Positions 14,015 to 23,427 of a DNA stretch of 64,000 nt are shown here, one piece after another. The DNA is taken from assembly GCA_947488655.1 (NCBI GenBank), contig CANKZZ010000002.1, positions 372,001 to 436,000 of the forward strand, written 5' to 3'. This stretch comes from an uncultured Psychroserpens sp. Its GTDB lineage: Bacteria; Bacteroidota; Bacteroidia; Flavobacteriales; Flavobacteriaceae. The translations under genes and the position numbers were made by a program. How positions within the stretch are numbered: the first letter of the stretch is position 1; each line of letters starts with the position of its first letter. The notes beneath the pieces are model-generated. The model did not search any database, was not told the origin of the DNA, and worked only from the letters and a program-made list of their open reading frames with translations.

Positions 14015-14088
14015 GGCCTCGTAGTTCAACTGGATAGAATATCAGATTTCGGCTCTGAGGGTTGGAGGTTCGAATCCTCTCGAGGTCA
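14015..14088 (+). tRNA. tRNA-Arg (anticodon TCG)
   Basis: 74 bases fold into a full cloverleaf: acceptor GGCCTCG/CGAGGTC plus discriminator A, D stem GTTC/GAAT, anticodon stem TCAGA/TCTGA with loop TTTCGGC (anticodon TCG, reads CGA), T stem GGAGG/CCTCT with loop TTCGAAT. CCA is not encoded. Its 3' end is the insertion site of the island to the right: bases 14076-14089 are repeated at 23135-23148, so integration rebuilt an intact tRNA. Confidence 0.96.
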
Positions 14089-14089
14089 C
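14076..14089 (+). repeat. Left attachment site of the island (14-bp direct repeat)
   Basis: CCTCTCGAGGTCAC covers the T-stem 3' strand, the acceptor 3' strand, the discriminator and one further base of tRNA-Arg. The same 14 bases occur in direct orientation at 23135-23148. An adjacent integrase gene points the same way. Confidence 0.9.
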
Positions 14090-14095
14090 AATATG

Positions 14096-14149
14096 TGAAT
14101 AGTATTGACTATTCATGGCGAAAGAATCTCACTTATAGTGGGGTTTTTT
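14096..14149 (+). terminator. Two hairpins just inside the left end of the island
   Basis: TGAATAGT (14096-14103) pairs perfectly with ACTATTCA (14108-14115) around a 4-base loop. A second stem CTCACT/AGTGGG (14128-14133/14137-14142) is followed by six Ts. The second is a plausible terminator for tRNA-Arg, whose native terminator now lies at the far end of the island. The rest of the stretch up to the integrase start at 14465 shows no convincing gene. Confidence 0.6.
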
Positions 14150-14464
14150 GTTTTTTGGGTTAGTCATTATTACCCATAATGCTTCAAAATCACTAGCCCT
14201 ATTTCTAGCCCTTGTAATTTTCACGATTTTTTTAGAAAATAATTATAGCTTTTTTATTTACCCAAAACTGGGATGTAATCTCAAACTTTCCATTGAAGAA
14301 GTATACAGTTTTGGTCTTGTTAATAAATAATTATTCAGCCCATATCCGTTGTTACCATTAGGATTGCTTTGAATTTTGTAAAGGATTAACGATGTTTTTA
14401 CATGAAGAAAATTTAATTCAGAGGTATTATATGTAATAATATCTAATTGTAAAACATTTTAGTT

Positions 14465-15634
14465 ATGAAAAATTCAACATCAGTAAAAACGATTCTAAGA
14501 AAAGAAAAAAAGAAGAAAAACGGTATGTGTCCTTTGTACCTAAGTATTATTGTAAATGGAAGGCAATTGAGACTGCCAATTGGTAAAGATTGGTTCGCTG
14601 ACCAATGGGGAGATAGATACAATAGTTATCCAAAGGGAAATGGTTCGAGTACTTTAAAGAAATTGCTAGAGAATAAAGAACAAAAAATGAAAGACTATAT
14701 TAATAAGCTTGAAATGTTAAATGAACCTGTAACATTTGAAGCTTTAAAAGAGTTTTATAATGGTAGAACTGATATTAGAAAAGACTTTTATTATCACTTT
14801 GATAAGTTTACTCAAAAGAAATTTAATGTAATTAAAAAAGGAACTCAAAGTCATTATTTATTGCTTAAAAAACAGCTTAAGGAATTTAAGCCAGTTTTAT
14901 TGATGCATCAAATTGATTATGGTTTAGTTGACGATTTCTTTTTTTATTTAAGTCATGTCAAAAATGTTGGTGTAAGTGGCTTAGCGACTAGAAGAAAAAA
15001 CTTAATTACTGTTTTGGAAGAATATAAAAAATTAGGTTTAATTGAAAAAAACTATTGTAAGCAGTTACCTAGATTTAAGGAGAAAACAAGAACTACTTTT
15101 TTGACTAAAAATGAAATGGAGAATATAGCTACTGCTAACCTTGATGTAGGTTCTCGAACAAACGGATTAAACCTAACAAGGGATAAATTTCTATTTAGTT
15201 GTTATACTGGTTTAAGATATTCAGATGTTGAAAGTTTAGTCATAGATGAAATTAAACAAAATAGAGTGGTTAAAGTAACTCAAAAGACTGGTTCAAAAGT
15301 TATCATACCTCTTAATGATAAGGCGTTAGCTATTTTGAAAAAGTATAGTTTTAGAAGGAAAATTGGATTTATCTTTCCAAGAAGATGTAATGTTTCTGTT
15401 AATAGAGATTTAAAGCTGATAAGTAGAATTGCTGAAATTGATACAGCAAAGGTTATAACATTCCACGTAGCACGACATACTTTTGGTTCTACATTAGCTA
15501 TTGAAGGAGTGCAACCTTTCCATATTATGAAGTTAATGGGGCATTCTGATATTAGAACGACGAGTAGGTATGTTAATACAGATGATACCATCTTAGAAAA
15601 TGTAATGAAAAAAGTAAGCTTCGATGCTGCTTAA
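14465..15634 (+). CDS. Tyrosine recombinase (island integrase)
   Basis: Site-specific recombinase expected to move the island in and out of tRNA-Arg. 389 aa. N-terminal arm-binding domain ~1-90, SAM-like core-binding domain ~100-205, catalytic domain ~210-389. Catalytic residues in order are Arg251 (GLRYSD), His334-x-x-Arg337 (HVARHTF), His360 (LMGHSD) and the nucleophile Tyr369 (TSRYV), a complete set. Family resemblance is to the phage-type integrases with Bacteroidota arm domains found on conjugative transposons and islands. It is the first gene inside the left attachment site, the usual place. Confidence 0.95.
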   Translation: MKNSTSVKTILRKEKKKKNGMCPLYLSIIVNGRQLRLPIGKDWFADQWGDRYNSYPKGNGSSTLKKLLENKEQKMKDYINKLEMLNEPVTFEALKEFYNGRTDIRKDFYYHFDKFTQKKFNVIKKGTQSHYLLLKKQLKEFKPVLLMHQIDYGLVDDFFFYLSHVKNVGVSGLATRRKNLITVLEEYKKLGLIEKNYCKQLPRFKEKTRTTFLTKNEMENIATANLDVGSRTNGLNLTRDKFLFSCYTGLRYSDVESLVIDEIKQNRVVKVTQKTGSKVIIPLNDKALAILKKYSFRRKIGFIFPRRCNVSVNRDLKLISRIAEIDTAKVITFHVARHTFGSTLAIEGVQPFHIMKLMGHSDIRTTSRYVNTDDTILENVMKKVSFDAA

Positions 15635-15754
15635 AAGTTTAATAGGAAAGTATTACTTTTACTATTGTAAAATATTGTTAGCGTAAGCTATTTAACTTGT
15701 TGAAGAAAACTGGTAATTTTTAGACACTACGAGATAAATAGACTTTATGCTCAT

Positions 15755-15832
15755 GCTATGGCGTGGGCTGGGTTTATTTGTAGTGTGGGTATACCAGTAC
15801 CTCTTCAACGGTAAGCTTCAGTTCCACGCTTA
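15755..15832 (+). other. GC-richer, self-complementary segment between integrase and TonB-domain gene
   Basis: Against an AT-rich background this ~75-base stretch is clearly richer in G and C. GCGTGG (15761-15766) can pair with CCACGC (15824-15829), enclosing the palindrome GGTATACC and a TACC/GGTA hairpin (15798-15801/15810-15813). It may be a structured RNA, a remnant repeat or a recombination site; the sequence alone does not decide. Confidence 0.35.
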
Positions 15833-15881
15833 TTTTTTTGAAATTAATTTTCGTTTGGGCTTGCGAATATTTAAAATAGTC

Positions 15882-16817
15882 ATGAAAAAATACTTACTCA
15901 TTATCTCCTTATGTATAATTAACCTAGCCTATTCACAATTTAATACACCAAAAGAGTTTTTCGAGTTTTCGCAATATACAAGCCCTAAAAAGCAGAGATT
16001 ATTGGAGATTAACAATTGGAACGATTTAGGTAAGGATTTGTATGAAATTAAAAAAAATGATGTCACTTTTAAAATCTATGTAGAGACTACTAATAAATTG
16101 GGTGTAAACAGCGAATATAAGGACTATACAATTTTACGAATGTCAGATGGAAAATTATTAGATGAATATTTGAGTTTTTTTATAAGCGTAGGTTTTGAAT
16201 TATCTAAGACAGAAGAATTTGTTAGTTGGTATAATAATGAAAAGAAGAAAGAAATTAGTTTACAAATTCAAAAAAATGTAAGAGATGAGATTTTCGTTAT
16301 TCAAATAAGTTATGAAATTGAAAACTTTTATGATTATTTGAAAAGAGCCTCCAAAGAATTAGAAGACGTAAAAGACAAAAGCGTTAGTCAGCGAAAGAGC
16401 TATTTGCCATCAGAAATAGTATCAAAGAAAGAGTCAAATACAAAGATGTATAGTAATGAATTTGTAGATACAAACAATAATCAAAACTTACAGAATTAAA
16501 CAGGTGTTGTTATCCACTATGATAGCGAAAATAATTTTGAGGAAGATATTAAGAAAGGTTACATTTTAAACAATCGAAACCTCTTATATATGCCGAAAAT
16601 TATTTCTAATTGTAAAGAGCGAGGGGTGGTAATGGTTAAAATCAAAGTAAATCAAAGTGGTAAAGTAATGCAAGTAATTTCAGGTGTGAAAGGCTCAACA
16701 ACATTATCTAATTGCCTTTTGAAAGAGGCGGAAGAATTAGCATTAAATACAATTTGGAATGGAGATTCTAACGCTCCCTTTGAGCAGATAGGTTTTCAAA
16801 GAATAGTTTTTGAGTGA
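15882..16817 (+). pseudogene. Secreted TonB C-terminal-domain protein interrupted by one in-frame stop
   Basis: The likely start is ATG 15882, giving a clean signal peptide (MKKYLLIISLCIINLAYS, cut before Q). The open frame first ends at TAA 16497-16499 after 205 aa. Reading on in the same frame gives ~105 more codons without a stop to 16817, encoding a typical Bacteroidota TonB C-terminal domain: VVMVKIKVNQSGKV, GVKGSTTLSNCLL, and FQRIVFE at the end. A single nonsense change therefore splits one gene. The upstream frame back to 15747 lacks signal-peptide logic and is not used. The N-terminal part has no family I recognise. It sits between integrase and CBASS as decaying cargo; translation of the second half alone from 16590 cannot be excluded. 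Confidence 0.7.
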
Positions 16818-17054
16818 GTTTTAAATAGTTTAGAGTCAATGCTAAGACGCTGAATTTTACTTTAAGTTATAATGCTTAATTTTTTTTAAAGCCCAGCTTA
16901 AAAGTATATTATATTATTTTATAACTAACTGTTAATATGGCAGTAAACTACTTGTCAGTAATTTTTAATAAAAATTTTACTATTAAAAGTTAATATTATC
17001 GATTAAACTACAAATATATGACACGATGTCATATTAAGATTTCTTTAACAAAGT

Positions 17055-17069
17055 TGGCACGTTACTTGT
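17055..17069 (+). promoter_or_regulatory. Sigma-54-like motif TGGCAC-N5-TTGT
   Basis: TGGCAC (17055-17060) and TTGT (17066-17069) have the exact 5-base spacing of the -24/-12 sigma-54 promoter, with T instead of C at the last position. A transcript from it would run into the hairpin at 17087-17123 within a few tens of bases. No activator binding sites were identified. Confidence 0.3.
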
Positions 17070-17085
17070 CCAGTTTTTTACAGAT

Positions 17086-17169
17086 GAAAAAAGTCCTGAC
17101 ATTGGACCGAAAGGACTTTTTTTAATAACGAGCGATTTCTTAGAAAGGTTAAATCGCTCTATGTTTTGT
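17086..17169 (-). ncRNA. Candidate small RNA on the minus strand upstream of the CBASS operon
   Basis: On the minus strand a TATATTTG -7 element (complement 17175-17182) with TTTG 21 bases upstream (complement 17204-17207) would start a transcript near 17169. That RNA would hold a perfect 9-bp hairpin (GAGCGATTT/AAATCGCTC, 17130-17138/17151-17159), then the strong hairpin at 17087-17122 followed by a T run, about 80 nt in all. No conserved family is recognised. The surrounding stretch 16818-17279 has no gene. Confidence 0.4.
17087..17123. terminator. Bidirectional rho-independent terminator
   Basis: AAAAAAGTCCT (17087-17097) pairs with AGGACTTTTTT (17112-17122), T-rich on both strands. It separates the broken TonB-domain gene from the CBASS operon and would also end the minus-strand small RNA candidate. 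Confidence 0.75.
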
Positions 17170-17279
17170 GGGTGCAAATATACTACCTTTTTTTTATAAT
17201 CTACAAACTTTCAACTTTCCTTTCTCGGTTTAAGCTCAGCCCCGATAAATGCTGATTATTTTTAAATATTAATAGCAAA

Positions 17280-17510
17280 ATGGAAAATTTTCATTTAGTT
17301 CGAGAGGACGACAAGTACAAGTTAAAAAGAGAGAATGCTGAAAGAGCATCTAAAGTAATTAACTCTAATAAGGTTGATGCGATTAGAGAAGCTAGGGATT
17401 TTATTAAATCGAAAGGTGGAGGATCATTAAAAATCCATAAGAATAAAGGAGGGTTTCAAGAAGAAAGAACCTATCCAAAATCTAAAGACCCAATAAAATC
17501 TAAAGGATAA
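17280..17510 (+). CDS. DUF2188 small protein, first gene of the CBASS operon
   Basis: 76 aa, highly charged, no signal peptide. It matches the DUF2188 pattern: an N-terminal strand, a central helix with the alanine-rich EAxxxAxxxxKSKG stretch (here DAIREARDFIKSKGGG), then SLKIHKNKGGFQEERTY corresponding to the family's IHgkdGkIq..ytY end. The family has no settled function. It ends four bases before the CD-NTase ATG and is surely co-transcribed with it. That placement suggests an accessory or regulatory role in the defence operon, or simple cargo. Confidence 0.75.
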   Translation: MENFHLVREDDKYKLKRENAERASKVINSNKVDAIREARDFIKSKGGGSLKIHKNKGGFQEERTYPKSKDPIKSKG

Positions 17511-17514
17511 GACT

Positions 17515-18591
17515 ATGGCTAGAAATTACACAAATTTAATTGAGAATATTAAACATAGAACCAATCCAGATGCTATTAATGAATCTGAGATAATGGATAA
17601 GACATTTAGTGCCGAACTTAGAGATTTAGCAGATAAAAAAGTCCTAGAATATATTAAGAGGGCTATGAGAGGAGTTGAATCAAGATATGCCGAGAGAACT
17701 ATTGAGGCAGGTAATAAAGTTATGATGCATTTGAAAAATAATAATTCTAGTTTGGATTATAAATTTCAAGGGTCTGTTCCGAGTAATACCCACATAGTGG
17801 GGCATAGTGATATTGACTTGGTTCAAATTACAAATTCGTTTTATTCGCATGAAAGTAAATCTAGCTTTACTAACAAGTTTAATAGTGGATATTTAACTGT
17901 ATCTGAAAAGAGTAGATTACTAGACGTTATTAATGGTAGTACATATTTTGGCGATGTAAATGCAGATTTGAGAAAACTTAGAACAGATGCAGAGTTAGTG
18001 CTGACTTCTGTTTATAAGAATGTGGATATAACTAAAGCTAAATCAATTGAGGTCAATCCAACTAATCCAGATAGGATTGTGGATGTTGTTACAGCATCTT
18101 GGTATGTTAATGTAGATTCGGTATTAACAAACGATGAAACAGATAAAGGTATCCAGATTTACAATAAAGAAAAGAATACAAGGTTGCCTGTAGATTTTCC
18201 TTTTATGAAGATTAAATTATTAAATGAGAAAGATAAATCCGTTAATGGTCGTTTGAAAAAGATGATAAGATTCTTAAAGAACTTAAAAGCAGACTCAGAT
18301 TACACCTTAAAAGAAATTTCTAGTTTCGATATTAGCTCAATTTGTTACAATATACCTATATACAATTATGAAAATAAGCCATATTATGAATTGGTAGTCG
18401 TTTTGTTTTCAGAATTTATGAAAATATTTGAAGATGAAAATTATAGAAATAGTATTATGTCAATTGACGGTTCTGAACCAATTTTTAGAGGTAAAGATGA
18501 AAAAGTTGATAAATTGAGATTGTTATTTAGAGAGCTTTTCACTGTTAATGAAGATTTAATGTCGCAAACTTCTTACGCTAAATTTTTATAA
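17515..18591 (+). CDS. CD-NTase (cGAS/DncV-like nucleotidyltransferase) of a CBASS system
   Basis: Expected to make a cyclic (di)nucleotide alarm signal on phage infection. 358 aa. The nucleotidyltransferase signature is clear: FQGSVPSNT (G86-S87) followed by the metal-binding pair D99-x-D101 in GHSDIDLV, and a third acidic residue at D190 in RIVDVVTA. An alpha-helical C-terminal domain follows. The product is not readable from sequence; CD-NTases paired with bacterial STING are known to make 3',5' c-di-GMP (established for characterised CdnE enzymes), so that is the best guess. Two bases separate it from the TIR-STING gene. No Cap2/Cap3 genes, so type I CBASS layout. Confidence 0.9.
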   Translation: MARNYTNLIENIKHRTNPDAINESEIMDKTFSAELRDLADKKVLEYIKRAMRGVESRYAERTIEAGNKVMMHLKNNNSSLDYKFQGSVPSNTHIVGHSDIDLVQITNSFYSHESKSSFTNKFNSGYLTVSEKSRLLDVINGSTYFGDVNADLRKLRTDAELVLTSVYKNVDITKAKSIEVNPTNPDRIVDVVTASWYVNVDSVLTNDETDKGIQIYNKEKNTRLPVDFPFMKIKLLNEKDKSVNGRLKKMIRFLKNLKADSDYTLKEISSFDISSICYNIPIYNYENKPYYELVVVLFSEFMKIFEDENYRNSIMSIDGSEPIFRGKDEKVDKLRLLFRELFTVNEDLMSQTSYAKFL

Positions 18592-18593
18592 TA

Positions 18594-19517
18594 ATGAAGA
18601 AGAGAGTTTTTATAGGAAGTTCTACTGAGGAGCTAGGAACCGCAAAAATTGTACAGAGATTATTGCAAGATGAATTTGATGTTGTAATATGGGACGAAAA
18701 ATTATGGGAAAAAGGACCAGTTTTTAAATTGAATAATAATTTCTTAACGGACTTATTAGCTTCAACATTGAAATTTGATTTTGGAATTTTAATTGGTTCT
18801 CCAGACGATAAAGTTGAGTCTAGGAAGAAAGTATATATGCAAGCTAGGGATAATGTTTTATTTGAATTAGGCTTGTTTGTAGGAAGGTTAGGATTAGATA
18901 AATGTGCGTTTTTAGTTAGTAAAGATGTTAAAATCCCATCTGATTTTGGGGGTATTAAATTGTCATTATATGATAATACTAATTTAGTAGAGAAGGTTGA
19001 TGAAATAAGAGATTTATTTAAAAACTCAAGTAGTAATGATTTGAATTTTTTCCCATCTAGTACTATTGCATCTACTTACTACGAGAATTTTGTTAAATTA
19101 GTATGTGAATATTACATTAATAATGATGGATTTGACTTTAATGATATAAAGTACAAAAAAGTAATATTTAAGATATTCGTTCCTGAAATATTAACGGATA
19201 ATGCTAATACACAGTCTGTTAGATTGCAGAATAAATTAAAGATAAATGATGAAATTTCATTTGGTACTCCTGGAAGAATGAGGAGTGTAAGGGTGAGTAG
19301 CATTATTGAAGAGGATACTTTGATTTTAGCTGACTTCCCTACTATTTTATCAGGAATAAAGCATGCTATATCCAATCTTCTACCTAAAGAATTCAATGAG
19401 CAAAATGATGAATATAAATTAGTTTTAAACAGAGAATTAAATAAGTTTATAGAGTCATTGGAAATCATTGTAAGAAGAAATAATTATCACGATTTCGTAA
19501 GGATTGTAAGGGTCTAA
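18594..19517 (+). CDS. TIR-STING effector (Cap12-like) of CBASS
   Basis: Two-domain effector: when STING binds the cyclic dinucleotide, the proteins oligomerise and TIR cleaves NAD+, killing or arresting the infected cell (established for bacterial TIR-STING). 307 aa. Residues 1-145 are a TIR-like nucleotide-binding domain (KRVFIGSSTEE, then the candidate catalytic Glu91 in NVLFELGLFVGRLG). Residues ~155-307 match the bacterial STING fold, with basic residues R228-R233 (GRMRSVR) and the DFPT motif at 247-250, which falls where ligand-contacting Asp and Thr lie in known bacterial STINGs. No membrane segment, so soluble. Last gene of the operon; a terminator follows. Confidence 0.85.
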   Translation: MKKRVFIGSSTEELGTAKIVQRLLQDEFDVVIWDEKLWEKGPVFKLNNNFLTDLLASTLKFDFGILIGSPDDKVESRKKVYMQARDNVLFELGLFVGRLGLDKCAFLVSKDVKIPSDFGGIKLSLYDNTNLVEKVDEIRDLFKNSSSNDLNFFPSSTIASTYYENFVKLVCEYYINNDGFDFNDIKYKKVIFKIFVPEILTDNANTQSVRLQNKLKINDEISFGTPGRMRSVRVSSIIEEDTLILADFPTILSGIKHAISNLLPKEFNEQNDEYKLVLNRELNKFIESLEIIVRRNNYHDFVRIVRV

Positions 19518-19538
19518 TAAATTATCAAAATTTTAATT

Positions 19539-19569
19539 AAACCGTTTGTTAAATCAAACGGTTTTTTTT
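19539..19569 (+). terminator. Rho-independent terminator after the CBASS operon
   Basis: AAACCGTTTG (19539-19548) pairs with CAAACGGTTT (19555-19564), followed by a run of Ts. It isolates CBASS transcription from the excisionase/replication genes. Confidence 0.85.
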
Positions 19570-19666
19570 GATTAAAATTAAATTTTAACAAAATTTTAAG
19601 GTTTAATGCGGCACAAAAATGAGGCTAGCTGTTATTAGTTTAGTATAAACTATTAATTGTTTAAAC

Positions 19667-19954
19667 ATGAAAAATTTAGAGGATAATTTAAGACGAAGTA
19701 TTCAAGAATTTAAGGTTTACAACCTAAATAAATTAATACAGTTAAGAAGACAACAAAAAGAATATTTTGAGTTAATTTCTATTCAAAAGTCAATGGATGA
19801 TTGGCTAACAGTAAATGACTTAATTAAAGAATTTGGTATAAGTAGAAAAACTTTTGATAGATGGAGGATAGATGGGCTAAAAGTATACCAAAAGAAGCCA
19901 AAGGCTGTAATTATAGTTCAGAGAAAAGATATTATAAATTACTTGAAGAAATAA
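19667..19954 (+). CDS. Excisionase-like helix-turn-helix DNA-binding protein
   Basis: 95 aa. N-terminal ~45 residues form a charged helix with coiled-coil character (LIQLRRQQKEYFELISIQK); residues ~47-95 are a MerR/excisionase-type winged helix: WLTVNDLIKEFGISRKTFDRWRIDGL then a basic wing ending in IVQRKDIINYLKK. Proteins of this kind on integrated elements direct excision with the integrase and often control the adjacent replication gene. The rep gene starts within a few bases of its stop, so the two are one operon. Confidence 0.8.
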   Translation: MKNLEDNLRRSIQEFKVYNLNKLIQLRRQQKEYFELISIQKSMDDWLTVNDLIKEFGISRKTFDRWRIDGLKVYQKKPKAVIIVQRKDIINYLKK

Positions 19955-19957
19955 GTG

Positions 19958-20908
19958 ATGATTGATTACTTTAAAGCTAGAGGTGAATTAATATCTTATT
20001 TTCCAGATAAGTATTGCTTATTGTATTCAGATGATTTAAGAGATACATCAGTAATAAAGCGAATGAGAATCCCTAATAAATCCCATAAGCGTTTCTTAAT
20101 ATTTTCATATTTAGTAGAGCAACCACATAAAATAAGAATTGAGGGAAATTTACGAAAATGGTGGTTTGGGGAAAAGTCAGCTGTTGCAGATTTAAACAAA
20201 TCGAATTTAAATAAATGTGTTAAGCTTATAGGTGAAAGATTAGGTGTTGATGAATCGGAAATATGGAAACTGGAATTTTCTAATTTAGAATTAGGTGGTA
20301 ATGTTAAGTTAGAAAGAAAGTATAATTCATTAATTCCTTCTATCATTGATTATCCTAGATTAGAAATGACAAGATTTAGCAGAAAATCAGTAAAGTTTGA
20401 GGGAGACAAATATTCACTTATAATTTATGATAAGTTACAAGAACTTAAAGACCGTGGAAAAATCTCTTCTGAAACAGCAAAGAGGCTCATGGAATATATT
20501 TTTATTTTCCGTTTTGAAATTAAGATAGGAACTAAATCAGGTTATGTGCATAAGGATAAAGTGAAGACATTTGCTTTGGTCAGAGACAACTTTGATTTCT
20601 TAGTGGATGATTGGTTAGATAGGTTTTACAAGTTTAAAATAATTGATTTATTCTCAGGTGTAAAAGAAATCCCTAGAGGTAGTATGACAAAACGAGAGTT
20701 TTTAGATTATTTAGTATTCCAAAAAATGTGTGAAATAGGAATCGATTATACATTATATCTTTCAGATACGTTTGTTAAGAATCATAAAAGTGTATCAAAG
20801 AAAGAGTTGTTGAAAATACACAAGAAATTTAGTGATGGTAAGAAATGGAATTATTATACACATATTGCTAGTTCAGTTGCTTTAAAGGCTGGACAATTTA
20901 AAAGATAA
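19958..20908 (+). CDS. Phage/plasmid replication initiation protein, gene II/X type
   Basis: 316 aa from ATG 19958; a GTG at 19955, directly after the excisionase stop, is an alternative start. The segment IRIEGNLRKWWFG, followed by ELGGNVKLERKY, matches the N-terminal part of gene II/X-family replication proteins (filamentous-phage and plasmid Rep). These are thought to nick and initiate single-strand rolling-circle replication. I could not identify the catalytic tyrosine with certainty. Its presence suggests the excised circle can replicate. A hairpin terminator lies ~140 bases downstream. Confidence 0.75.
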   Translation: MIDYFKARGELISYFPDKYCLLYSDDLRDTSVIKRMRIPNKSHKRFLIFSYLVEQPHKIRIEGNLRKWWFGEKSAVADLNKSNLNKCVKLIGERLGVDESEIWKLEFSNLELGGNVKLERKYNSLIPSIIDYPRLEMTRFSRKSVKFEGDKYSLIIYDKLQELKDRGKISSETAKRLMEYIFIFRFEIKIGTKSGYVHKDKVKTFALVRDNFDFLVDDWLDRFYKFKIIDLFSGVKEIPRGSMTKREFLDYLVFQKMCEIGIDYTLYLSDTFVKNHKSVSKKELLKIHKKFSDGKKWNYYTHIASSVALKAGQFKR

Positions 20909-21045
20909 TATTATCTATTAATAATAGAAGATAGATACTGTATAGGTAAGTTAATAACTTTTATAATTAAAGCGAAATTTTTGGATTTGCTTTTGAATGG
21001 TACAAGTAAATTCAGAAAGCTTATTACAAGATAGGCCAAGTACCT

Positions 21046-21069
21046 ACAAGTAATACTTTACTTGTTTTT
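21046..21069 (+). terminator. Rho-independent terminator between rep and the RT locus
   Basis: ACAAGTAA (21046-21053) pairs perfectly with TTACTTGT (21058-21065) around a 4-base loop, followed by Ts. It separates rep transcription from the ncRNA-RT unit. Confidence 0.7.
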
Positions 21070-21164
21070 AAGTATGGTTTTATTGGGTTTTACTTTTTTT
21101 AAAGCAAGTATAAAATAAATCTAAAGAAAAGTAATTAGAAAGCAGATATTCCACTATATATTTA

Positions 21165-21172
21165 TAACTTTG
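21165..21172 (+). promoter_or_regulatory. Promoter -7 element of the ncRNA/RT unit
   Basis: TAACTTTG matches the Bacteroidota -7 consensus TAnnTTTG exactly. No TTG is seen 17-19 bases upstream, so only half the promoter is supported. Transcription would begin near 21178, exactly where the structured RNA begins. Confidence 0.55.
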
Positions 21173-21175
21173 GAT

Positions 21176-21487
21176 AGTACCTTGAAGGCGAGCTGAATAA
21201 CACGTTTAATAAACAATTGCTCGTCTATTTTGATAGCGAGGTGAATGTATACCAAATATGCAAATTTCTATTAAGAAAGCTGTATATTTCTTCAAGAGAC
21301 CTTTCATTAGGCACCTCTTGATACATTCTAATACTGTGTATATCATAAGTGAGACTATTAAGTTAAACTTCTGTAAAGATACAATATTTATACCTGACGT
21401 AAGGAGCGCTGGTCTAGTATCGGCGACATATGCGCGTGTTGTTCCATTAAGTAAAGCATGCTCCGATGTCACGCCTTTGAGGTATTT
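21176..21487 (+). ncRNA. Structured non-coding RNA of the reverse transcriptase system
   Basis: About 310 nt between a -7 promoter element and the RT gene fold around a terminal stem: 21176-21190 pairs with 21472-21486 over ~15 positions (core AAGGCG/CGCCTT, flanking GU and AU/GC pairs). Inside are a hairpin CTCG-T-CTAT/ATAG-CGAG (21220-21240), a perfect 7-bp stem TCAAGAG/CTCTTGA (21292-21298/21315-21321), and a long stem 21395-21408/21459-21471 (TGAC/GTCA plus GGAGC/GCTCC) capped by CGACA/TGTTG (21424-21428/21437-21441). The last 90 bases are much richer in G and C than the surroundings. Placement matches ncRNAs of DRT2- and DRT9-type defence RTs. Folding was done by eye. Confidence 0.75.
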
Positions 21488-21491
21488 TTTT

Positions 21492-23054
21492 ATGACAAAA
21501 AAACGAAAACAAAAAGATTGGTTTAGAATTAAAAGGTATCCTCATATTGGACTTCAGTATGAACATAAGGATAGACCAAAGATTGAAAGCTATGTGAAAA
21601 ATAAGACTAAAATTAAGTCTCACGCTTTTTTGCCATTTATTCATAGAACGATTGCTGTCAGAAAATTTAGGAGAAAGAAATTGAGCGATGGTTCCCGTTC
21701 AGAAAAAAGAATAGCGTCTTATAAAGAGAGAGAGGTGTTTTATGCTAGCCATTTAGATTCTTTTATTTTTAGTTATTATGCTGATTTAATAAATAAATCC
21801 TATGAAAAATTTATTGAGAATAAATCTGTAAGTAATTGTGTTACTGCTTATCGGCAGATTAAACTTAATCCACAAAACAAAAATTCTAGGAATAAATGTA
21901 ATGTTGATTTTGCCAAAGATATATTTGATTACATTAAGGCAAATAAGAGTAAAAGTTTAGTTGCAATAACATTTGATATAACCTCATTTTTTGATAATCT
22001 AAATCATAGGCTTTTAAAAGAAGCTTGGATTAAAGTATTAGGTTTAAAAAATGAATTACCAGAAGACCATTATTCAATATTTAGAAATTTAACAAAGTTC
22101 GCTTATATTGAAATAGATGATTTGTTTGAAGAATTTAAGAATGATATTGTAGTTAAGACTAAAAAAGGAAATTTAACAAGAAGTAAAGTGCCCAGGCTTG
22201 ATTTGTTAAAAGAAAAGAAGGCAGTTGCATTTTGTTATCAAGAAGATTTTCCAAGTAGAATAAGAGACAAAAATTTAATAAAATCAAATAAGTGGAAGTT
22301 TGAAAATAATAAGAAAATATTAAGGAATAAAGGGATTCCGCAAGGCTCACCTATAAGCGCAATTTTGGCTAATGTGTACTTGATTAATTTTGATACTATA
22401 TTACAAGATTTTGTAGCTTCAAAAGGAGGTGTCTACCAGCGTTATAGTGATGATATGGTTGTAGTCATTGATGAAGAATACAGAGATGAAATAATTAATA
22501 AATTTCAAGAAGAAATTAAAAATGTACAATTAGAAATTCAGCCTTCTAAAACTCAGGTCTATGTTTTTAAAGCATTTGACGGTGAATATTGTTGTAAAGA
22601 GTTTAATATTGAAACTAAAGAATTATCTAATAAAACAAAATTTGATTATCTAGGATTCTCCTTTGATGGTAATCATGTTTATTTAAAATCATCTGCTTTA
22701 GCGAAATATTATCGTAAAATGAAAAGAGCTTTCAGAAGAGGTAGCTTTTATGCCAAGTATGGTAAGAATGGTGAGCCGAAGTTGTTTAAGAATAGGCTTT
22801 ATAAAAGGTTTACATATTTGGGAGCAGGTAGAAGAACTATTTATAAACGTGACCCTAGCAATCCTGATAAATGGATTCCTACTAATAAATATGATTGGGG
22901 AAACTTTTTATCTTATACTAGCCTTGCTTACAGTGTTTTTAATGAAGATAAAATTAAAAAGCAAATTAGAAATAGTTGGAATATCTTTCATAAGATAATG
23001 ACAAAAAAAGAAGAAGATATTAAGAGCTATCATAAAAGGAGAAAACATAAATAA
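21492..23054 (+). CDS. Defence-associated reverse transcriptase (DRT, UG family; DRT2/DRT9-like)
   Basis: Reverse transcriptase expected to copy the RNA encoded just upstream as an anti-phage response. The frame is open back to 21237, but that part lies in the structured RNA; ATG 21492 (520 aa) starts a basic N-terminus. From that Met: the first metal Asp in TFDITSFFD (~160-168), GIPQGSPISAILANVYL (~281-297), and the catalytic YSDD box at 318-321. A conserved N-terminal block (HAFLPFIHR, then YASHLDSFIFSYYADL and VTAYRQI) is the type seen in unknown-group (UG) defence RTs, not retron RTs. No maturase, endonuclease or nitrilase domain. The exact UG class is a guess. Last gene of the island. 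Confidence 0.85.
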   Translation: MTKKRKQKDWFRIKRYPHIGLQYEHKDRPKIESYVKNKTKIKSHAFLPFIHRTIAVRKFRRKKLSDGSRSEKRIASYKEREVFYASHLDSFIFSYYADLINKSYEKFIENKSVSNCVTAYRQIKLNPQNKNSRNKCNVDFAKDIFDYIKANKSKSLVAITFDITSFFDNLNHRLLKEAWIKVLGLKNELPEDHYSIFRNLTKFAYIEIDDLFEEFKNDIVVKTKKGNLTRSKVPRLDLLKEKKAVAFCYQEDFPSRIRDKNLIKSNKWKFENNKKILRNKGIPQGSPISAILANVYLINFDTILQDFVASKGGVYQRYSDDMVVVIDEEYRDEIINKFQEEIKNVQLEIQPSKTQVYVFKAFDGEYCCKEFNIETKELSNKTKFDYLGFSFDGNHVYLKSSALAKYYRKMKRAFRRGSFYAKYGKNGEPKLFKNRLYKRFTYLGAGRRTIYKRDPSNPDKWIPTNKYDWGNFLSYTSLAYSVFNEDKIKKQIRNSWNIFHKIMTKKEEDIKSYHKRRKHK

Positions 23055-23134
23055 TTATCCCTATTACTATCCCCTTAATTTTTCATAAGCTTTAAACCCT
23101 AGTCATATGTGGAAAATTTTAACTAAGTTGTATC

Positions 23135-23148
23135 CCTCTCGAGGTCAC
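23135..23148 (+). repeat. Right attachment site of the island (14-bp direct repeat)
   Basis: CCTCTCGAGGTCAC, identical to the end of tRNA-Arg at 14076-14089. The bases before it do not resemble a tRNA, so this is a displaced tRNA tail. The chromosome resumes to the right. Confidence 0.9.
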
Positions 23149-23156
23149 GAATAAAT

Positions 23157-23212
23157 AAAAAACCTAAGCGTTAAATCAAGCTCGCTTGAATTTATTAGCT
23201 TAGGTTTTTTAT
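23157..23212 (+). terminator. Displaced native terminator of tRNA-Arg
   Basis: AAAAAACCTAAGC (23157-23169) pairs with GCTTAGGTTTTTT (23198-23210), a perfect 13-bp stem with a nested TCAAGC/GCTTGA hairpin. It starts nine bases after the right attachment site, where a terminator would stand if the island were absent. Confidence 0.75.
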
Positions 23213-23427
23213 TTTCAAAGCGGAATTTTAGAGGATGCGTAGCAATCCAATAAAATTTTGATTTAATGTATAAGTTTAGAACTAAATCAAGCTCGTTTGA
23301 ATTTATTAACTTAGGTTTTTTATTTTCAAAGCGTAATTTTAGAGGATGCGCAGCAATCCAATAAAACTTTGATTTAATGAATATGTATAAAACTAAATCA
23401 CGCTCGCTTTAATATTGATGCTTAAAA
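23173..23427 (+). repeat. 111-bp imperfect tandem repeat (two full units and a partial third)
   Basis: Units start at 23173, 23284 and 23395, each with AAATCAAGCTCG or a one-base variant, giving an exact 111-base period. Units 1 and 2 share long blocks such as TTTTTTATTTTCAAAGCG and TTTTAGAGGATGCG; unit 3 is cut short. Each full unit carries the 3' half of the tRNA terminator. There is no gene in 23055-23503. Confidence 0.85.

What the first reader, a model, noticed from the sequence alone, without database searches (positions are those of the whole stretch)
21165..23054. Reverse transcriptase with a structured RNA closed by a long terminal stem
Upstream of the RT, ~310 nt begin just after a TAnnTTTG element and end six bases before the RT ATG. 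Their two ends pair (21176-21190 with 21472-21486). Inside are several strong stems (21220-21240, 21292-21321, 21395-21471), and the 3' part is GC-rich against an AT-rich background. The RT has a YSDD box and UG-type N-terminal blocks. This looks like a DRT2/DRT9-like defence unit from Flavobacteria, whose RNA may belong to an unlisted branch.
Basis: partly seen in the sequence, partly recalled or inferred. Interest (0 to 1): 0.9.

Follow-up and report, generated by a model that had tools for sequence, protein, structure and literature searches.

The report
Reverse transcriptase builds a hidden gene

Summary
21492-23054 encodes a DRT2-lineage reverse transcriptase (PADLOC Drt2 465 bits; fold closest to KpnDRT2). 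The ~310 nt before it form a structured RNA closed by a 15-bp terminal stem that covaries across homologues; no Rfam family matches. The RT sits in a Bacteroidota-rich branch apart from the Klebsiella type. The main result goes beyond the finding. Inside the RNA a 6-nt direct repeat (TATACC, 21248 and 21389) brackets 141 nt. Copied head-to-tail on the antisense strand, this unit gives an endless hydrophobic ORF of 47-aa repeats ('neo'). Its junction assembles TTTG-N20-TATCTTTA, one base from the Bacteroidetes promoter consensus, with an in-frame ATG 27 nt further on. A rule drawn from 21 loci was tried on 68 newly fetched ones: the top candidate's length is divisible by 3 in 51 of 59 (chance 1/3), with an antisense endless frame in 48. 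With the ATG added, 51 of 68 loci pass against 4 of 1360 shuffles. The 2024 preprint found Neo annotation 'more challenging' in divergent DRT2 clades; this offers an answer for one. No bench test was done. The mechanism is known; promoter type, junction repeat and RNA architecture are new here.

The parts
21492..23054 (+). DRT2-lineage reverse transcriptase, 520 aa, YSDD active site
   Evidence: PADLOC Drt2 464.9 bits; NCBIfam Drt2 373 bits, curated cut-off 390; PDB 9c0i phmmer E 1.2e-54; AF2 model pLDDT 89.8, Foldseek top hit 9c0i
21177..21487 (+). structured non-coding RNA (ends approximate, inferred)
   Evidence: fold z -4.41; conserved ends and covarying stems in homologues; no Rfam match
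21165..21172 (+). TAACTTTG, possible -7 element of the RNA promoter
   Evidence: sequence; comparable element in only 14 of 89 clade-B loci
21176..21190 (+). terminal stem, 5' arm (pairs with 21472-21486)
   Evidence: homologous stem covaries
21472..21486 (+). terminal stem, 3' arm, running into a T run
21195..21205 (+). second long-range stem, 5' arm (pairs with 21434-21444)
   Evidence: 8 of 11 pairs with changes on both sides over 13 loci
21434..21444 (+). second long-range stem, 3' arm
21220..21240 (+). 5' handle hairpin
   Evidence: sequence; equivalent hairpins with other sequence in homologues, read by eye
21248..21388 (-). predicted template unit, 141 nt = 47 codons, endless antisense ORF neo
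   Evidence: family-level tests
21248..21253 (+). junction repeat copy 1, TATACC (end of each cDNA repeat)
21389..21394 (+). junction repeat copy 2, TATACC (proposed re-annealing site for the next round)
21261..21264 (-). -33 element TTTG of the junction promoter (antisense)
21374..21381 (-). -7 element TATCTTTA of the junction promoter (antisense), 20 nt after TTTG only across a repeat junction
21344..21346 (-). predicted neo start codon ATG (antisense), 27 nt after the -7 element
21206..21472 (-). genomic antisense ORF (88 aa) that contains the whole neo unit
14076..14089 (+). att copy at the 3' end of tRNA-Arg (island left end)
23135..23148 (+). att copy just after the RT (island right end)

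Best explanation
This is a DRT2-type anti-phage unit of a Bacteroidota-rich branch. The RT binds the RNA transcribed just upstream of it. It copies 21388 down to 21248; at the end of each pass the new cDNA tail (GGTATA, copied from TATACC-1) re-anneals to TATACC-2 and copying starts again, giving head-to-tail 141-nt repeats. Once double-stranded, each junction joins a -33 TTTG from one repeat to a -7 TATCTTTA of the next at a 20-nt spacing, which makes a Bacteroidetes-type promoter that the chromosomal order does not have. Transcription yields a stop-less mRNA read from an ATG 27 nt downstream into a hydrophobic repeat protein (Neo) that presumably arrests the infected cell. Shown by sequence: RT lineage, RNA structure, junction repeats, length divisible by three, open frame, promoter spacing, start codon. 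Inferred by analogy with KpnDRT2: RNA binding, rolling-circle copying, second-strand synthesis, phage trigger, growth arrest.
For: RT lineage and fold. Covarying RNA. The window has one solution; 16 of 3000 shuffles give one with microhomology of 4 or more and spacing 20, 3 of 2000 with the ATG. 17 of 21 first loci have a solution, 15 of them at what I judge the same place with spacing 20. Held-out: top candidate length mod 3 = 0 in 51 of 59 (p 4e-17; 37 of 43 after removing similar units), antisense endless in 48 of these 51, while scaffold length mod 3 is spread 22/24/13. An in-frame ATG lies 6-30 nt after the -7 element in 62 of 62 open units examined; ATG within 60 nt in 4 and 9 of 62 in the other antisense frames; Neo GRAVY 0.93 against 0.04, -0.56 and (sense) 0.20. 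Full rule with ATG: 51 of 68 held-out loci against 4 of 1360 shuffles; 0 of 19 clade-A loci and 0 of 12 loci outside the branch. A sigma70 version of the scan finds TTGACA...TATAAT, 12 of 12 bases, at junctions in 3 of 11 loci outside the branch, all three classic DRT2. Capnocytophaga L132 carries exactly two tandem copies of its predicted unit.
Against: No bench data. A promoter-plus-microhomology candidate alone also arises in 42% of shuffles. 30 of 606 overlapping 420-nt tiles of the window also give a solution under the rule, two of them this locus. Under the first, looser rule 10 of 19 clade-A loci have some solution, without consistent placement. Sense-strand endless frames occur in 16 of 51 units. 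Substitutions are not clearly third-position biased (0.293/0.291/0.344 and 0.321/0.253/0.294). 19 of 89 clade-B loci stay unsolved even under a relaxed rule, a few with unit lengths not divisible by three. The window's -7 element ends in A, not G.
Confidence: 0.86

Rival explanations
1. DRT2-lineage RT and RNA, but cDNA acts directly (as in DRT9 or retrons) and the antisense frame is a by-product of RNA structure and base composition.
For: Amino-acid-level selection on Neo is not clearly seen in substitution patterns; sense frames are open in 16 of 51 units.
Against: Length divisible by three, antisense frame, 20-nt promoter spacing and an in-frame ATG coincide in 51 of 68 held-out loci against 4 of 1360 shuffles; scaffold lengths are spread over the three classes.
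Confidence: 0.08
2. The RNA is a protein-coding leader: the RT starts upstream at 21258 and the region is coding, not RNA.
For: The RT frame is open back to 21258.
Against: In the homologues with a measured upstream stop the frame is closed at varied distances, 9 to 201 nt before the matched start region; the stems covary at RNA level.
Confidence: 0.01
3. Rolling-circle gene synthesis occurs, but with a different junction in the window than TATACC/TATACC.
For: Alternative solutions appear in some homologues.
Against: The window has one solution and it sits at the homologous place; the closest relatives L079 and L080 give the same unit length of 141 with ATAC/ATACC.
Confidence: 0.04
4. The locus is a decayed remnant without function.
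For: Some relatives have out-of-frame units (L083, L102, L124).
Against: RT frame intact with the active-site residues, unit open, promoter elements and stems present.
Confidence: 0.01

Closest known systems
KpnDRT2 (Klebsiella pneumoniae DRT2; PMC12039810, PMC11100668; PDB 9c0i)
   Same: RT lineage and fold; upstream RNA with variable template between conserved flanks; short direct repeats at template ends; unit divisible by three; antisense endless ORF; promoter and start codon reconstituted across the junction.
   Different: Junction promoter TTG-N20-TAnnTTT(G) instead of TTGACA-N17-TATAAT; junction repeat TATACC instead of ACA; RT 520 against 425 aa; RNA about 310 against 280 nt, with about 70 nt before the template (28 in Kpn) and a terminal stem joining its two ends, which the passages on KpnDRT2 that I read do not describe; score below NCBI's Drt2 cut-off.
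DRT9 (PDB 9vma, 9nlv)
   Same: Class 2 UG reverse transcriptase with an associated RNA.
   Different: Much weaker sequence and fold match; DRT9 copies a poly-uridine tract into homopolymer (PMC12632851, passage).
DRT10 / UG17 (PMC12632851, passages read)
   Same: Repeat-making UG RT with RNA; UG17 is the best PADLOC family after Drt2.
   Different: E 3.2e-23 against 9.5e-140; described as tripartite, making tandem-repeat cDNA of unclear role.

Membership tests
DRT2 | RT of the DRT2 sequence lineage | tested here: met
   Best PADLOC family Drt2 by more than 100 orders of magnitude in E over the next distinct family; nearest PDB sequences are KpnDRT2
DRT2 | Score above the NCBIfam NF041746 equivalog cut-off (a naming threshold, not a mechanism) | tested here: not met
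   373 against 390 bits; 0 of 395 order and 0 of 397 family genomes pass it, 1 of 395 class genomes does. I therefore file it as a variant of the DRT2 lineage, not as NCBI's equivalog.
DRT2 | YxDD active site and DRT2 fold | tested here: met
   YSDD invariant in 26 sequences; AF2 model to 9c0i TM 0.70/0.85
DRT2 | Structured RNA directly upstream of the RT | tested here: met
   transcription not tested
DRT2 | ACA direct repeats flanking the template (of KpnDRT2 and its close relatives) | tested here: not met
   TATACC here, ATACC/ATTC/TATTT in relatives: same place and proposed role, other sequence
DRT2 | Template length divisible by three with an antisense endless frame | tested here: met
   141 nt, one antisense frame; 48 of 59 held-out candidates
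DRT2 | Promoter and start codon reconstituted across the repeat junction | tested here: met
   TTTG-N20-TATCTTTA and ATG 27 nt after it; sequence only, activity untested
DRT2 | Pseudoknotted 3' scaffold and self-priming from the RNA 3' end | not tested
   A GGAGC/GCTCC-like pairing across homologues was seen by eye only
DRT2 | Concatemeric cDNA, Neo toxicity, phage defence | not testable with these tools
   needs cells
DRT9 | RT closest to DRT9 | tested here: not met
Retron | RT closest to retron RTs | tested here: not met
Group II intron | Maturase RT and intron RNA | tested here: not met
   TIGR04416 73.9 bits against cut-off 300; no Rfam intron match in the window at gathering scores

The most novel reading that the evidence does not exclude
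RNA-templated gene synthesis is a modular trick whose junction promoter is re-tuned to the transcription machinery of each host: sigmaA-type TTG-N20-TAnnTTTG in most Bacteroidota of this clade, an alternative TAnnTTGY box (like motif SM5 of F. psychrophilum) in some, and sigma70-like elements where the same RT clade sits in Psychrobacter. Its products can on occasion be fixed in the chromosome, as the exact two-copy unit of Capnocytophaga leadbetteri suggests.
Probability: 0.5. Interest if true: 0.82.

Novelty: new variant of a known kind. Interest (0 to 1): 0.74.

Why it matters
The first papers on DRT2 showed that a bacterium can make a gene that its genome does not hold in readable form, for KpnDRT2 and its relatives; for more divergent clades the preprint says Neo annotation was more challenging, suggesting possible alternative mechanisms (PMC11100668, section 10). 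The rule found here gives exact, testable repeat units, junctions, promoters and proteins for dozens of Bacteroidota systems, and would help explain why a search built on ACA repeats and sigma70 promoters misses them. It also turns a general question, whether such a hidden gene must match its promoter to the host's RNA polymerase, into a simple reporter and swap experiment.

Tried and rejected
Tried without result: single-protein scans of genome contigs and viral contigs gave no relative, probably because the back-translated peptides were too specific; an alignment query worked. Rfam at a loose threshold gave three matches, all far below their gathering scores. Codon-position substitution rates gave no clear coding signal, reported against my reading. 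A control that shifted the unit by multiples of three was uninformative (118 of 305 open), since it keeps most of the frame. A sigma70 scan at 10 of 12 matches is not discriminating (34 of 65 clade-B Bacteroidota loci also hit), so the Psychrobacter promoters are suggestive only. Clade A (19 loci, the other subclade of the branch, weakly supported as a group) has hydrophobic antisense endless units of 183-189 nt in two subgroups, but I could not find its promoter or a firm junction. Rejected: RT starting at 21258; DRT9, retron and group II readings.

Rows dropped: L072 (RT in pieces) and L078 (no upstream) from the tree; L104 (frame problem) and 11 duplicates of first-set loci from the held-out set, found by equal contig lengths; 21 of 86 loci without the ACGTTT anchor from the arm-swap test; L132 from the Neo composition set and L066 from the ATG count (63 and 62 units), both of which hold only units with an open frame. 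The ATG part of the full rule was noticed on all loci together, so it is not strictly held out; the rest of the rule was drawn from the first 21 loci. Many held-out loci are relatives of first-set loci. One search found 376 relatives and kept 80.

Full report
What is there. The RT gene runs 21492-23054 (520 aa). PADLOC's Drt2 model matches with 464.9 bits, E 9.5e-140; the next distinct family is at E 3.2e-23 and Drt9 at 1.6e-17. NCBIfam's Drt2 gives 373 bits, below its cut-off of 390. The nearest solved proteins are KpnDRT2 entries. An AlphaFold model from 26 aligned sequences (pLDDT 89.8) has KpnDRT2 9c0i as top Foldseek hit, E 4.6e-37 against 2.3e-12 for DRT9. In a tree of 52 RTs, 40 form one branch (support 100/97) apart from 12 others: 5 classic ones from plasmids and a phage (Photobacterium, Psychrobacter, Calothrix, Desulfovibrio relative, Clostridioides phage) and 7 from genomes of the window's own class. 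Within the 40 I speak of clade A (19 rows, support 84/44) and clade B (21 rows with the window, 99/98). Matches at E below 1e-60 occur in 27 of 397 sampled genomes of the window's family and 12 of 395 of its class, its own genome counted in both.

The RNA. The stretch folds better than 100 of 100 shuffles (z -4.41) and matches no Rfam family. Aligned homologues show conserved 5' and 3' blocks around a more variable middle, the pattern published for KpnDRT2. The terminal stem 21176-21190/21472-21486 is a family feature: arms of the same locus pair at -21.8 kcal/mol on average, arms swapped between loci at -13.5 (65 of 86 loci with the anchor). On 16 loci the two long-range stems exceed 500 of 500 shuffles on each measure. 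On the window and 12 others the inner stem and a 3' hairpin do so for cells paired, cells with changes on both sides and covariation score; 3 of 500 shuffles reach the number of pairs with changes on both sides, and 238 of 500 the number of pair types, so that last measure gives no support.

The hidden gene. In KpnDRT2 the template is flanked by two ACA motifs, the repeat is divisible by three, the antisense frame never stops, and -35/-10 elements meet at the junction (PMC12039810, main text and bioinformatics section read; PMC11100668, sections 7 and 10 and part 1 of 2 of the figure legends read). I asked whether the same logic exists here without presuming ACA or sigma70. In subgroups of close relatives, pairs of alignment columns that give a unit divisible by three and open antisense in every member, with a shared microhomology, include pairs at the borders of the variable region. 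The window has TATACC at 21248-21253 and 21389-21394, 141 nt apart. The antisense concatemer reads NIVSLQKFNLIVSLMIYTVLECIKRCLMKGLLKKYTAFLIEICIFGI per repeat, and the junction reads TTTG-N20-TATCTTTA. Flavobacterial sigmaA promoters have TAnnTTTG at -12 to -5 (PMC9723704, passages), and a TTTG at -33 is described for Bacteroides fragilis and the F. johnsoniae ompA promoter (PMC2483708, passages); those passages give no spacer length. The window's -7 element differs in the last base; L079 and L080, the nearest relatives at 57% identity, have the full TATCTTTG with the same 141-nt unit.

Tests. The rule was drawn from the first 21 clade-B loci, where 17 gave a solution with spacing 19-21. A scan of named genomes then brought 80 loci; 68 remained after removing 11 duplicates and one with a frame problem. 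Using only microhomology of 3 or more and TTG-N20-TAnnTTT across the junction, 59 of 68 have a candidate; this step alone is weak, since 42% of shuffles also have one. But the top candidate is divisible by three in 51 of 59 and has an antisense endless frame in 48; after removing similar units 37 of 43 and 34 of 43. Sense frames are open in 16 of 51, and scaffold lengths are spread over the three classes. A start codon was not part of the rule, yet an in-frame ATG lies 6-30 nt after the -7 element in 62 of 62 open units examined, while the other two antisense frames have one within 60 nt in 4 and 9; Neo is hydrophobic (GRAVY 0.93; window 1.12), as reported for Klebsiella. Everything together holds in 51 of 68 held-out loci against 4 of 1360 shuffles, in the window (3 of 2000 of its shuffles), in 0 of 19 clade-A loci and 0 of 12 loci outside the branch. 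As a positive control, a sigma70 version finds 12-of-12 TTGACA-TATAAT pairs at junctions of 3 of 11 loci outside the branch, the Photobacterium, Desulfovibrio-relative and Clostridioides-phage ones. Against: 30 of 606 tiles of the window itself give some solution under the rule, two of them this locus; and under the first, looser rule 10 of 19 clade-A loci do.

Exceptions. With a relaxed -7 box and a narrower placement of the junction 70 of 89 clade-B loci are solved, 65 with TAnnTTT and 5 with TAnnTTGY, a box described as motif SM5 in F. psychrophilum. None of the three proteobacterial members (L093, L103, L109) fits the Bacteroidetes rule; Psychrobacter L109 has TTGACT-N17-AATAAT at a 129-nt unit, but such matches are common by chance. 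19 loci remain unsolved, among them these three, L132 with its doubled unit, and a few with out-of-frame units. Substitution patterns do not show clear protein-level selection.

A natural concatemer. In Capnocytophaga leadbetteri (L132) the predicted 132-nt unit is present in exactly two perfect tandem copies with the antisense ORF running through both; a relative of the genus has one copy at 92.6% identity (matches in 2 of 20 genomes of the genus). Replication slippage between the junction repeats, capture of RT-made DNA, or an assembly fault could each give this.

Setting. A 14-bp copy of the tRNA-Arg end (14076-14089) recurs at 23135-23148, just past the RT. Between them lie a tyrosine recombinase, a CD-NTase with a Cap12 TIR-STING effector (CBASS), a DUF2188 protein, several unassigned genes, and the DRT2 unit: apparently a mobile defence island of about 9 kb.

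Novelty. Searches of the held library show no description of Bacteroidota neo genes or their promoters in the titles and abstract beginnings listed; the words Bacteroid and Flavobacter do not occur in the held main texts of PMC11100668, PMC12039810 and PMC12632851. The final journal version of the first was not held, and supplements could not be read, so a partial overlap there is possible. The kind is known; the branch's promoter, junction repeats and RNA architecture are the new part.

Noticed in passing
14076-23148: A tRNA-Arg-borne island: 14-bp att repeats, tyrosine recombinase 14465-15634, CBASS CD-NTase 17515-18591 and Cap12 TIR-STING 18594-19517, DUF2188/PDC-S16 protein 17280-17510, DRT2 at the far end.
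   Followed up: partly
L132 2580-2847: Capnocytophaga leadbetteri has exactly two perfect tandem copies of the predicted 132-nt template unit; a sibling genome (L161) has one.
   Followed up: partly
L103, L109: Psychrobacter carry clade-B RTs (42-43% identity to the window's) without the Bacteroidetes -7 box; sigma70-like elements at a plausible junction.
   Followed up: partly
L040, L097, L055, L128: Junction -7 box is TAnnTTGY instead of TAnnTTTG, resembling the alternative motif SM5 of F. psychrophilum.
   Followed up: partly
L042, L044, L045, L048, L051, L012, L041, L013, L046: Clade-A relatives have hydrophobic antisense endless units of 183-189 nt but no recognised junction promoter.
   Followed up: partly
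L077: Clostridioides phage HGP05 carries a classic-type DRT2 with a 12-of-12 TTGACA-N17-TATAAT junction and a 132-nt unit.
   Followed up: no
19667-20908: Two genes inside the island (95-aa protein with weak HTH matches and 317-aa protein without family match), perhaps excision or replication functions.
   Followed up: no
23155-23420: Similar stretches repeated two to three times just outside the island's right end, seen by eye.
   Followed up: no
L072: Marivirga plasmid copy of the RT matches in seven pieces and seems broken.
   Followed up: no
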